IMG/VR virus record: IMGVR_UViG_3300024261_000007
Span: 62,001-126,000 of that record
Length of the DNA: 64,000 nt
From: a virus
Direction: 5' to 3' (one strand)
The position numbers and the translations under genes are program-made. Positions 13,272 to 26,177 of this stretch are shown here, in pieces. The notes beneath the pieces were generated by a model that did no database searches, was not told where the DNA came from, and saw nothing but the letters and a program-made list of their open reading frames with translations. Each line of letters opens with the position of its first letter. Position 1 is the first letter of the stretch.

Positions 13272-16200
13272 ATGGCAGAACAGACATTTAAGTCTCCAGG
13301 ATTTTTCGAAAGAGAGATTGAGTTAGTTAGTCGTCCTCTTACACGAAATACAGCTACACCAGTGGGTGTAATTGGTCCTGCCCAAAAAGGACAAGCTTTC
13401 GTACCGAAAACAGTAACAAGCGTAGATGAATTTATCAGAGAATTCGGCATGCCCGACCAAGATACTTCAGCATCTCATGCTGTTGCTGAGTTTTTTGCAA
13501 ATCGAGGTAAAGCAGCAACTTTCTGCCGTATTTTAGGTACTGGTAAAGGTTACGGCTCAGATCTTAAATTTGCAGGATTCAAACTAGATGGTGCAGACTT
13601 AGGGCAAAATCAAGCAAAAGGAGCAGTACAGTTTATTGTTGCAGAACACAAAGTTGATGACGCAGAACATGTTACATATGGTATTTTTAACGATAATGAC
13701 TCAATCACAACAAACGCTGACGAAGACCCAAGTAATGGCTTAGTCGCTAACGACGACATAATACAGCTAGTTCGTGCAATGATTTTTATGCATAAGGATT
13801 ATACGTTAAGAATCGTTTCAGGCGGTGGAACAGATCAATCTCAAGTGTCAGATGATGCTGATAAAACTTTTACTCTTTATATTCACGATGCAGTCAATAA
13901 TTTGCTTGTAAAACAATATACAGTTTCTTTAGACCCAGCGTCTTCGCAATATATTTCAAAAGTTTTAAACACAGATTCTTTCAGTTTTACAAGCACAGGA
14001 CACTTTCTTTATGCAGACTTTCCTGTAGAAGATCTTCTTGCATCAACTCGAGCACAAAGTGTTGCTGTAGTTAGAGGTAAAGATGACGGTAATTATTTGG
14101 ATATGTATGGAGACTTTGTTTCTCGATTTGAAGCACCACGTACAACCTCGTTTATATCACAACCTTTTGGTGATAAAGAATATGACTTGTTTCACTTTGA
14201 ATCTTTAGACGATGGAACATATGCAAGTGATGATTACAAGATTTCTATTGCAGATCTTCGTGCATCAACAGAGAAAAATTATAGATTTGGAACATTTACT
14301 GTTCAACTTCGTAAAATTGATGATACAGATGATGCGCCTATTATTTTAGAATCTTATGCAAGATGTTCTTTAGATCCAGATTCTCCAAATTATATCGCAA
14401 GACGAATTGGAGATCAAAAAGTTTATTTAAATCTTGATACAAATGACGAAGATGAAAAGCGTCTGCTAAGAGAAGGTACTTTCCCGAGCCAGTCAACACG
14501 TATTCGAGTCGTAATGAATAAGTCAGTGACTCGCAACGAAATCCCAGAAGATTCTCTTCCTTTTGGTTATCGTGGTATTCCTACTTTAAGAACAACACCT
14601 AACGGTAAAGACGGAGGAGAAAATCAAGTTTCTTTGCTTTCTGGTCGTGATGTTGTTTCCGGTGGTGCATCTGATGATTTAGGTTGTGCTGTATTGCCTC
14701 CTTTGCCTTTTAGATCAAAAGTAACAAGAGGCAGTATGCAAAAAGACGGTACTTACTTTCAAACTTATTTTGGACAATCTTTAGAAGAGTCTAATGGCGT
14801 TGTACAAAAAGTAACTCAAGAAAATGTTAAGTCTTATTTCTACTGGGGATTACATACACAAAAAGTAACAAATATTAACGAGCCTAATAGAGGTGGTTTA
14901 ACTGATTTTAATCCGCTTATTATTAATTTAACAAAGTTCTTGACAAAGTCAGATGCACTTAAATTTAGTTCTGAAGAAGCAGACAGCTTTAACAATAACA
15001 AGTTTTCTTTATCGAAAGTTGCATTCCCTTATGCTTCGATTACTGATATACCTAACGTATTGTCAGATGCCTTTTTAGAGGCAGCGTACATTCGAAATGC
15101 TGATGTTGGTTCAAATGCATACGATTCTGTTGCACACACAATTAATATGGCAGCTGATAATATACAAGATGCATTTACAAATGAATTGCAAGGTCAAAGT
15201 CAGGCAATTCGTGCAACAATGGCTAAACTTTTAGCAGAAGATCCTGTTAAATTTAATAAGTACAGCTTGATGGCTAAGTTTACTGCTCCTTTTTATGGTG
15301 GTTTTGACGGTGTAAACATTTTAGATAGAGATGACTTCTTCTTTACAGACAAATCATCGTCTATTGATGTAGATGGTCATGCTGGCGCTAATGGATATTT
15401 AAGTGGTCTATCAGGAACAAGTGACATTAATGAGTCATTAGGTTTACCAATTCAAGGAACAAAGCTAAATAACAATGCAGTGTTATCTTATAGAGAAGCT
15501 ATTCGTGTTATGACTGATGAAATGATTGTAGATCATAATGTCTTGGTTGTTCCTGGTATTAGAGATTCATTAATTACAGACTTTGCTGCACGAAGAGTTA
15601 AAGATTTTGGCAAGGCAATATTCTTGATGGATATACCTCACTACGATGCAGCAGGAAATAGAATTTTTGTTTCTTCACGTGGCGTAGCAAGTGGTATTGC
15701 TGATGTTGATATGACTAGTCAGCAATTTGATATTCGTGAACTTGATTCATCATATGTCGCAACATATTTTCCAGACGTTATGTTAAGAGATTCAGGAGAT
15801 GTTGTAAGTGATGGCGCAACTCAAAATCAAAGAGTTGTAAGAACGCCTTCTTCAGTTGTAGCCCTTGGCGCACTTGCTCGAACAGACAATTTAGCAGGAT
15901 CAGCACCCTGGTTTGCACCTGCAGGATTTTCTCGAGGTGCCCTTGGTAGAGTATCAAGTATTGATGTAAGATTAAACGCAGGTGATCGTGATACTCTTTA
16001 CGAGGCAAGAATTAATCCGATTGCAAATTTCCCAAATAATCAGTTTGTTATCTTTGGTCAGAAGACAACACAAATTGCAAGAACAGCTTTGGACCGTGTA
16101 AACGTAAGAAGATTAATGATCAATATCAAGAGAAGAATTCAAAGAGTTGCACAAGGTCTTTTGTTTGAGCAAAATGATGCAGCAACAAGAAATAGATTTA

Positions 16201-25400: not shown

Positions 25401-26177
25401 CAAATAGCAGATCAATGGTCGACACAAAGTATACAAAGTAAATATTCTTTTATCGTACATGGAAATTTAGATTGTACGACAAACACAGATTCTTTTTACA
25501 TGTCACCTGTAGTATATACTCTGGCACAATTTATAAAAAATTCAAATAGTATTACTGAATCAGGTAATATAAGTCTTTCAGGCTTAGACAGTATTAACTT
25601 AAACTTAATCGAAGGCATAGAGCTGACAAAGGGAACAACAGAAAATAAACAAGATTTTAAGTATTTAGAAAGACTTTCTTTAGATTACAAATTAAATCTT
25701 TTGGTCAAAAAAACTGCAAGTTCTTTATTTCCGACTTTAAACTCGCAGCTTCTTTCACATGAAGTTAATAAGTCTATATTTACAAGGCAGGATATTTTAA
25801 GAAGTATTTTGGTTATTAAAAAAAGAATTAAGTATGATTTATTTTTAAATCAGCGTTTAGTTGAAGGAGGATTTTTGTTTGCTCAGAATAGTAACTCTAA
25901 AAACTTAAATCAGTTATTAAAAATCCAGCTCGATACTCTGTTAAGCCAGTTTGTAAGTGAAGGTTTAATAGCTGATTTTAGAGTTGTTACTAAAAACTTA
26001 AGTGACCCTGAAGCTATTATTGATATGCAAAGCTATATTTTAAGAGGAACAGTATTATTAAAGTTTAACACAGGATTTAATAATTCTATAATAAATTTAG
26101 GCTTAGATAGTATATTAAGTGATCTAAGTCTATTAAATAATGAAAGTACAGATGCGGTTTTAATACCGACAGTATAA
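22497..26177 (+). CDS. Divergent tail sheath protein, paralogue 3
   Basis: A 1226-residue sheath homologue. The N-terminus retains TTLGVVGPAFKGQAFVPTVI, residues about 310-420 retain the LFKFFSLDDGEIGNRFRI block shared with the other sheaths (FKLHSLDDGS, FHFESLDDGT), and GGFDGVDIRD is present near 790. However the FAPAG-x-x-RG block is absent, FGQKT is missing, and the final linking strand is replaced by a hydrophobic end (NSIINLGLDSILSDLSLL). Base composition is more AT-rich than paralogues 1 and 2. It may build a specialised ring near the baseplate or neck, or be a decoration; this is inference. The ribosome site is weak (AACTAGGTAAACA). Confidence 0.8.
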   Translation: MAENDFAEIELGNIPRPNLQEQYAGLLSTTLGVVGPAFKGQAFVPTVITNEDGADNTLINKLGTNRQNLNQHLYDEFLNYKNSQGYLAANAWLSNGGEYLYYTRVLGIGSGIKNDLTGKMKGSGFRVDQNVSHGTLDNTRSAYRFSNNDVAKGSTGFVLRKISQANYTEVNRNAEDEFSKQGELEYYKELGLENNDYYFITNVFVFNQGVLPTFDNSFNNTYTLGDIEGNESGGISKNNIVVKKAKFVITNIKLNGYNPLFVEKMHENTFSKFRNGFTLGNNTYENYKENSAFSDSRKSSNTFVSKFFEKGFLNYASFPLFKLKTQASSISDTKILISKSLSDNEKLTKTDYNSWESEYTTAKTPWVTSQPLDRSGFTESIAGVAYDNRINIHKKVSNLFKFFSLDDGEIGNRFRIKINIKKKGNENISDIRFVNKIYNNKILENYSFYSNSANAQSLINELDNFYATFDVHVFEYDPRLHKFIDLEDETTSAITSVQSFNDLNLNPLSSNYIGKVIGTKHRYYDFEADCVVEKGKYENTNKYIRVEISDFIEKIESAKQHMLLPSGFRSYPHIELNKESFDHYLDQQGNDEFENFDFNDMFDNNEIKHLPPMYNLCYLEDYTLPETFSIKNSWGPLFFNIKMKNQNNNLLNIHDIDRYSGSSSVEDAKLLSPHLYYTKYFLSDCKSEYQNVWKEEDNYLNSFFHLEKICTTFHINTNTRQTTSASAISEKRNINYKHSGKNLKTFIENSAAFYINLDDTESDTSIWKDDRTLNDLFVDRLSFDMFTYGGFDGVDIRDNDKRSFTNTAIAREVLGEDEKSPAEGATYNSYKKAIKIAYDDAYSDIDFFVVPDAFNTQITEQCTKLSDDSKKTLFIGDAKGALDNIRTLLFYDNNEVGANREIVNFYEQLGLNANYYDISSKISSSYSRNDSNLIINGIDATGDAKTPVFKSNDEDVISYENIAKSLNRQIADQWSTQSIQSKYSFIVHGNLDCTTNTDSFYMSPVVYTLAQFIKNSNSITESGNISLSGLDSINLNLIEGIELTKGTTENKQDFKYLERLSLDYKLNLLVKKTASSLFPTLNSQLLSHEVNKSIFTRQDILRSILVIKKRIKYDLFLNQRLVEGGFLFAQNSNSKNLNQLLKIQLDTLLSQFVSEGLIADFRVVTKNLSDPEAIIDMQSYILRGTVLLKFNTGFNNSIINLGLDSILSDLSLLNNESTDAVLIPTV

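What the first reader, a model, noticed from the sequence alone, without database searches (positions are those of the whole stretch)
13272..26177. Three sheath paralogues for one tube gene
Genes at 13272, 16451 and 22497 all share the sheath N-terminus (GVIGPA or GVVGPA-x-KG-FVP) and GGFDGV core, while only one gp19-type tube gene (21854) sits between them. T4 uses one sheath protein. A mixed or layered sheath would be a new tail architecture, or one copy may have become a specialised ring.
Basis: partly seen in the sequence, partly recalled or inferred. Interest (0 to 1): 0.7.

Follow-up and report, generated by a model that had tools for sequence, protein, structure and literature searches.

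The report
Phage tail with three sheath genes
A group of uncultured phages carries three related genes for the contractile tail sleeve: two look like full sleeve building blocks, and the third looks like a scarcer, specialised piece, probably a ring at the bottom of the tail.

Summary
Confirmed: the genes at 13272 (A), 16451 (B) and 22497 (C) are true tail-sheath paralogues around a single tube gene. A-B align at E 2e-91, B-C at 1e-28; the C profile matches A and B over nearly full length. The predicted C model has the sheath fold (best Z 11.2).

IMG/VR relatives form a series: one sheath, two (A-B), then three (A-B-tube-C). C is most likely a fast-evolving copy of B.

A and B keep the C-terminal polymerisation strand, tube-facing helices and mostly strong ribosome sites, and share a unit with the tube gene that often ends in a terminator hairpin. 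C lies beyond it, with a weak ribosome site and no canonical C-terminal strand (0 of 48 complete C-termini, against 89/92 A, 92/93 B, 42/42 single sheaths), yet is under purifying selection.

Best reading: A and B build the contractile trunk; C is a low-copy ring, probably next to the baseplate. Multi-protein sheaths are known (PaBG phage, two; AFP/PVC injection systems, three), so this is a new variant. My searches listed no three-sheath phage in print. Stoichiometry and ring position are inferred.

The parts
11986..13212 (+). gp15-like tail terminator, upstream flank of the sheath block
   Evidence: Weak Pfam match PF16724, 19.4 bits against a cut-off of 25; the same position in relatives
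13272..16406 (+). Sheath A (1044 aa), canonical sheath with both arms and a strong ribosome site (AGGAG)
   Evidence: PHROG 23 E 2e-54; T4 gp18 chains E 7e-34; PF17482 above cut-off; model with Z up to 19 to solved sheaths; ribosome site
16341..16403 (+). C-terminal donor strand of A (residues 1024-1044), the element missing in C
   Evidence: Segment identities; C-terminal profile
16451..21802 (+). Sheath B (1783 aa), canonical C-terminal arm and a strong ribosome site
   Evidence: PHROG 23 E 7e-44; PF17482 above cut-off; next to A in relatives; ribosome site
16958..19246 (+). Large variable insert of B (about residues 170-932)
   Evidence: Stretch between conserved columns 169 and 933 of alignment A4; complete B relatives range from 968 to 1783 aa; no Pfam match
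21854..22342 (+). Tail tube, gp19 type; the only tube gene found in the record
   Evidence: PHROG 4542 E 2e-29 and PHROG 45; one copy in each of 16 of 16 records
22383..22416 (+). Terminator-like hairpin between the tube gene and C
   Evidence: 15-pair stem with a T run; fold z -4.46; the same place in about half of the relatives
22497..26177 (+). Sheath C (1226 aa), diverged and probably low-copy sheath paralogue with a weak ribosome site
   Evidence: Profile homology to A and B; predicted sheath fold, pTM 0.73, best Z 11.2 over 418 residues; purifying selection among relatives
26067..26174 (+). C-terminal tail of C (about residues 1191-1226) in place of the canonical donor strand
   Evidence: Alignment and profile ends
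26189..27034 (+). gp26-like baseplate protein, downstream flank of C
   Evidence: PF12322 E 2e-18; PHROG 150

Best explanation
The contractile tail is built from three sheath proteins that arose by two successive duplications. A and B are both full trunk subunits: each keeps the C-terminal strand that knits rings together and the helices that face the tube, and both appear to be made at high level with the tube. They most likely build the contractile trunk together, as mixed or alternating rings. C is a later copy, most likely of B, that no longer carries the parts needed to hand strands to another sheath ring. It keeps the outer domains and the acceptor hairpin, is read from beyond a terminator with a weak ribosome site, and most likely forms one ring at the baseplate end, taking strands from the first trunk ring above and meeting baseplate proteins below. 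Shown: homology, fold of A and C, order of duplications with limited statistics, loss of arm sequences, ribosome-site and terminator pattern, purifying selection. Inferred: presence in the virion, copy numbers, mixing of A and B, position of C.
For: Homology and fold. One tube per record. Of 103 distinct tube-to-gp26 stretches, 50 have C, always between tube and gp26, and 53 do not; B stands upstream in all 35 C-bearing stretches that reach that far. Two large C-less records (118 and 136 kb) show no C elsewhere. Trees: A one clade, B+C one clade, C one clade; C with the B of C-carrying phages, SH-aLRT 99. Arms: the C-terminal profile reaches position 101 or more in 89 of 92 A, 92 of 93 B, 42 of 42 single sheaths and 0 of 48 C; N-terminal SPG motif in 58 of 69 A, 35 of 41 singles, 0 of 65 C. 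Segment identities: C has diverged most in the N-arm, tube-contact helices and C-strand, while a middle domain and the hairpin are better kept. Expression: strong ribosome site (5 or more matching bases) in 61/69 A, 58/89 B, 103/122 tube, 5/65 C, 13/79 gp15; terminator-like hairpins after the tube gene in about half of the loci and hardly ever inside A-B-tube or C-gp26. Selection on C: dN/dS 0.07-0.24 in 12 of 12 pairs. Precedent for placement: Afp2 and Afp3 both occur in the AFP trunk entry 6rbn, Afp4 only in 6rao (baseplate) and 6rgl (title not seen), Pvc3 and Pvc4 only in the baseplate entry 6j0n, six chains each. Direction of strand donation inferred from passages of the diffocin paper, PMC10996793.
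Against: No virion data exist. The eCIS base-ring paralogues keep the C-terminal strand (Afp4 match ends at 102, Pvc4 at 105, 9qgl_4A at 102 of 110), so the parallel with C is not exact, and 9qgl_4A also occurs in a contracted-sheath entry. B mostly lacks the SPG N-terminal motif too (13 of 86) and its strong ribosome site is less regular than A's. The AU test does not reject other origins of C (p 0.053 and 0.062). The terminator scan finds a hairpin in only about half of the loci, and 7-15% of shuffled tube gaps also pass. Ribosome-site strength is only a proxy for copy number, and the loci are related to each other. The C model has mean pLDDT 63.6 with 392 of 1200 residues under 50.
Confidence: 0.52

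Rival explanations
1. A or B alone forms nearly all of the trunk; the other is also a minor end ring (for example neck-proximal), so the tail has one bulk sheath and two specialised rings, as PVC appears to have (Pvc2 with single Pvc3 and Pvc4 rings).
For: In PVC only Pvc2 is listed in the trunk entries, while Pvc3 and Pvc4 have 6 chains each in the baseplate entry alone. B has a large variable insert and an altered N-terminus.
Against: Both A and B keep the C-terminal strand and the tube-facing helices at high conservation and both mostly have strong ribosome sites in the tube unit. The gp15-like gene, taken as a low-copy yardstick (T4 gp15 is a hexamer, title), has a weak site (13/79).
Confidence: 0.22
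2. C is a structural protein of another place, for example a neck or collar ring, or an outer decoration that keeps the sheath fold without stacking in the sheath.
For: C has lost the recognisable donor arms and diverged at the tube contact; a middle domain is kept.
Against: It keeps the handshake hairpin region. A neck-side ring would still have to donate strands to the ring below, which C is least fit to do (direction inferred from PMC10996793). The gene lies next to a baseplate gene, not the neck genes.
Confidence: 0.15
3. C is not in the virion; it is an assembly factor such as a sheath nucleator or chaperone.
For: Low predicted expression, same unit as the gp26-like gene, absent from about half of the related stretches (53 of 103).
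Against: Large multi-domain protein with a sheath fold under purifying selection, which is unusual for a chaperone (inference).
Confidence: 0.07
4. All three proteins are mixed throughout the trunk.
For: All three are sheath homologues in one gene block.
Against: C lacks the canonical C-terminal strand in 48 of 48 complete C-termini and mostly has a weak ribosome site.
Confidence: 0.04

Closest known systems
Two-component tail sheath of Pseudomonas phage PaBG (Lupandier group)
   Same: A phage with two sheath paralogues from a gene duplication (38% identical), both found in virion gel bands (PMC7412058, passages and section 3.5.4 read)
   Different: Two genes, not three; proteins about 550 aa against 1044-1783 aa; no third diverged copy described. 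The primary paper (Kurochkina 2018) was seen only as a reference.
Three-sheath injection systems: AFP (Afp2, Afp3, Afp4), PVC (Pvc2, Pvc3, Pvc4), PlPVC1
   Same: Three paralogous sheath genes (PMC9230969 section 3.1); Afp2 and Afp3 in the trunk entry and Afp4 not; the fourth-numbered copy scores lowest of each set with our profile
   Different: Three adjacent sheath genes, whereas here the tube gene and often a terminator hairpin stand between B and C; the eCIS base copies keep the C-terminal strand; the window is from a virus record
T4 gp18 and single-sheath relatives (Rhodothermus phage RM378, Microcystis phage Mel-JY01, Flavobacterium phage immuto)
   Same: Same sheath family; gp15-sheath-tube-gp26 order in Mel-JY01
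   Different: One sheath gene each in the stretches read

Membership tests
Canonical phage tail sheath protein (gp18-like): A | Sheath sequence models and fold | tested here: met
   PHROG 23 E 2e-54, PF17482 33.6 bits over the cut-off of 26.9 (PF04984 24.3 bits, under its cut-off of 31.4), Z up to 19 to solved sheaths
Canonical phage tail sheath protein (gp18-like): A | C-terminal donor strand and N-terminal arm | tested here: met
   C-terminal profile to position 101 or more in 89 of 92; SPG motif in 58 of 69
Canonical phage tail sheath protein (gp18-like): B | Sheath sequence models | tested here: met
   PHROG 23 E 7e-44, PF17482 27.7 over the cut-off of 26.9; the fold of B was not predicted
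Canonical phage tail sheath protein (gp18-like): B | C-terminal donor strand | tested here: met
   92 of 93 complete C-termini; the N-terminal SPG motif is mostly absent (13 of 86)
Canonical phage tail sheath protein (gp18-like): C | Sheath fold | tested here: met
   Model pTM 0.73; Z 11.2, rmsd 3.9, 418 residues to 9ezm_A and Z 10.2 to T4 gp18
Canonical phage tail sheath protein (gp18-like): C | Donor arms needed to polymerise with another sheath ring | tested here: not met
   0 of 48 complete C-termini reach the strand; SPG motif in 0 of 65. C is therefore called a sheath paralogue, not a canonical sheath subunit.
Three-sheath extracellular injection system (AFP/PVC type) | Three sheath paralogues | tested here: met
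Three-sheath extracellular injection system (AFP/PVC type) | More than one tube paralogue (recalled: Afp1, Afp5) | tested here: not met
   One tube gene per record in 16 of 16
Three-sheath extracellular injection system (AFP/PVC type) | No head genes; AAA+ ATPase | not tested
   The record is classed as a virus; no systematic search for these genes was made

The most novel reading that the evidence does not exclude
A phage tail with a true division of labour: a two-protein trunk of A and B rings plus a dedicated base ring of C that accepts strands from the sheath above but no longer donates the canonical strand. C would be a sheath on the way to becoming a gp25-like initiator, with living one-, two- and three-sheath relatives that show how a contractile machine gains parts step by step.
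Probability: 0.33. Interest if true: 0.68.

Novelty: new variant of a known kind. Interest (0 to 1): 0.5.

Why it matters
Many contractile tails use one sheath protein, and how a homopolymer becomes a multi-protein machine is open. This phage group has living stages with one, two and three sheath genes, and the third copy has lost a defined set of contacts. That makes the gain of complexity in contractile machines directly testable.

Tried and rejected
Chance motif sharing was rejected by full-length homology. A pseudogene status for C was rejected by dN/dS 0.07-0.24 in 12 of 12 pairs and by open frames. A second tube gene was looked for and not found. The idea that Afp4 and Pvc4 had also lost the C-terminal strand came from match ends and was dropped after the focused profile. 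A link between three sheaths and a longer tail (protein at the tape-measure position) was checked: C group 995-1490 aa (27), two-sheath 683-1540 (12), single 688-1348 (14), overlapping and inconclusive. Pfam for the B insert gave nothing. A search for C in cellular genomes found no relative. In 50,697 phage records C matched only the sheaths of Mel-JY01 and RM378, weakly. Paper searches for far-T4 and Afp/Pvc terms mostly gave nothing useful. Searches for two, three or multiple sheath proteins or genes and for sheath paralogues listed no three-sheath phage; most subscription papers are not held. The gp25-like gene lies outside the window and its match is under the curated cut-off.

Full report
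Observation. A (P0001) and B (P0002) align at 29% identity over 882 columns, E 2e-91; A and C share several blocks, E 2e-10; B and C align at E 1e-28. A and B match the PHROG 23 tail-sheath family, and A matches solved T4-type sheaths by sequence. C alone matches none of these families, but a profile of ten C relatives aligns with the A and B profiles over nearly full length, E 1e-90 and 8e-106, and weakly with solved sheaths, E 0.002.

Fold. A predicted model of C (residues 14-1213 of 1226, pTM 0.73, mean pLDDT 63.6) matches solved sheaths from its N-terminal to its C-terminal domain: Z 11.2, rmsd 3.9 over 418 residues to 9ezm_A, and Z 10.2 to T4 gp18; Foldseek ranks T4 gp18 first, E 3e-7. 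The model of A gives Z 18-19 to several sheaths, some of them with large rmsd, which suggests domains placed at another angle. B was not folded because of its size.

Relatives. Scans of IMG/VR gave 2 loci with the window's C, 56 with A, 78 with the C profile and 80 with the B profile, overlapping in part (the last two lists were cut at the best 80). Gene order was read from six-frame ORFs and profiles. Of 103 distinct stretches that hold both the tube and the gp26-like gene, 23 have one sheath gene before the tube, 30 are of the A-B type without C (23 complete, 7 cut or partial), and 50 have C between tube and gp26. B stands upstream in all 35 of these 50 that reach far enough. Two large C-less records (118 and 136 kb, possibly incomplete) show no C elsewhere. 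Each of 16 records has one tube gene.

History. In a tree of 57 proteins A is one clade, B with C is one clade, and C is one clade. With more single-sheath rows, A and B each remain one clade, with the two ambiguous L171 copies beside A. Pairs in L171 and L203, and perhaps LR756508, look like further separate duplications; long branches make LR756508 unsure. C groups with the B proteins of C-carrying phages (SH-aLRT 99), but the AU test does not reject the alternatives (p 0.053, 0.062). C evolves fastest: identity to the window protein is 43-85% for A, 38-64% for B and 21-42% for C. It is nevertheless under purifying selection, dN/dS 0.07-0.24 in 12 of 12 pairs.

What C has lost. In the combined alignment the mean identity within A, B and C is 0.70, 0.57 and 0.18 for the N-arm, 0.57, 0.69 and 0.27 for the tube-contact helices, 0.86, 0.65 and 0.16 for the C-terminal strand, but 0.52, 0.40 and 0.37 for one middle domain (the functions attached to these segments are partly recalled). 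A profile of the last 110 residues reaches the C-terminal strand in 89 of 92 A, 92 of 93 B, 42 of 42 single sheaths and 0 of 48 C. The N-terminal SPG motif is in 58 of 69 A, 13 of 86 B, 35 of 41 singles and 0 of 65 C.

Expression signals. In the window A, B and the tube gene have AGGAG ribosome sites and C only AGGT. A terminator-like hairpin with a 15-pair stem follows the tube gene at 22383-22416 (fold z -4.46). Across unique contexts, 5 or more matching bases occur in 61/69 A, 58/89 B, 103/122 tube, 5/65 C and 13/79 gp15. Hairpins followed by a T run occur in 48% of 61 tube-C gaps and 57% of 46 tube-gp26 gaps, against 2% of 83 A-B, 1% of 80 B-tube and 0% of 48 C-gp26 gaps; shuffled tube gaps give 7-15%. 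The contexts are related, so the Fisher p-values overstate independence. This pattern fits A, B and tube as high-copy products, and C, like gp15, as low-copy; that step is an inference.

Mechanism. Passages of the diffocin paper (PMC10996793) say that the sheath initiator's hairpin contacts two first-layer sheath proteins and that the collar's strand enters the hairpin of the last sheath, so strands are handed down towards the baseplate (my inference). Trunk and neck-side rings must therefore keep donor arms, and only the lowest ring can change them to suit a baseplate partner while keeping its hairpin. That is the C pattern. A and B keep everything needed for the trunk. A gp25-like match is present elsewhere in the record, under the curated cut-off.

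Known precedents. PaBG has two sheath paralogues, both in virion bands (PMC7412058, passages and section 3.5.4). AFP and PVC sheaths are built of three proteins from adjacent genes (PMC9230969 section 3.1; PMC10598620 passage; PMC8894135 passages). In the solved entries Afp2 and Afp3 occur in the trunk entry 6rbn, and Afp4 only in 6rao (baseplate) and 6rgl (title not seen); Pvc3 and Pvc4 have six chains each in the baseplate entry 6j0n (entry titles). The eCIS base copies score lowest of each set but keep the C-terminal strand, which counts against an exact parallel. PMC9230969 notes that some phage genomes encode two sheath copies. My searches listed no three-sheath phage. Other papers were seen as passages only: PMC6357053, PMC7909554, PMC6690015, PMC7394362 and PMC11948020.

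Verdict. A two-protein trunk with a specialised C ring is the most likely reading at about one in two, and awaits virion data.

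Noticed in passing
window 8652-9167 and 9179-9691: Tandem paralogues (112 identical positions of about 170) of PHROG 36974, function unknown, just upstream of the neck genes; possibly head decoration proteins.
   Followed up: partly
window 16958-19246: B carries an insert of about 760 residues with no Pfam match; complete B relatives range from 968 to 1783 aa, so this part grows and shrinks freely.
   Followed up: partly
L171 (ORFs from 5693 and 8589), L203 (ORFs from 688 and 3280), L064 10512-16475: Further phages with two sheath genes whose copies pair with each other or fall outside A and B, suggesting repeated sheath duplication.
   Followed up: partly
L045 10001-12888 and L135: The A gene is split into two ORFs, while a near relative of L045 (L033) has it whole; frameshift, sequencing error or insertion not resolved.
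   Followed up: partly
window 21854-22342: The tube protein is 98% identical to that of L012 while A, B and C of the same pair are about 72, 60 and 42% identical: very strong constraint on the tube.
   Followed up: no
L064 16587-20701 and 24564-26084: Large ORFs that look like homing endonucleases (recalled resemblance, not searched) sit between and behind the sheath and tube genes of the 484-kb phage LR756508.
   Followed up: no
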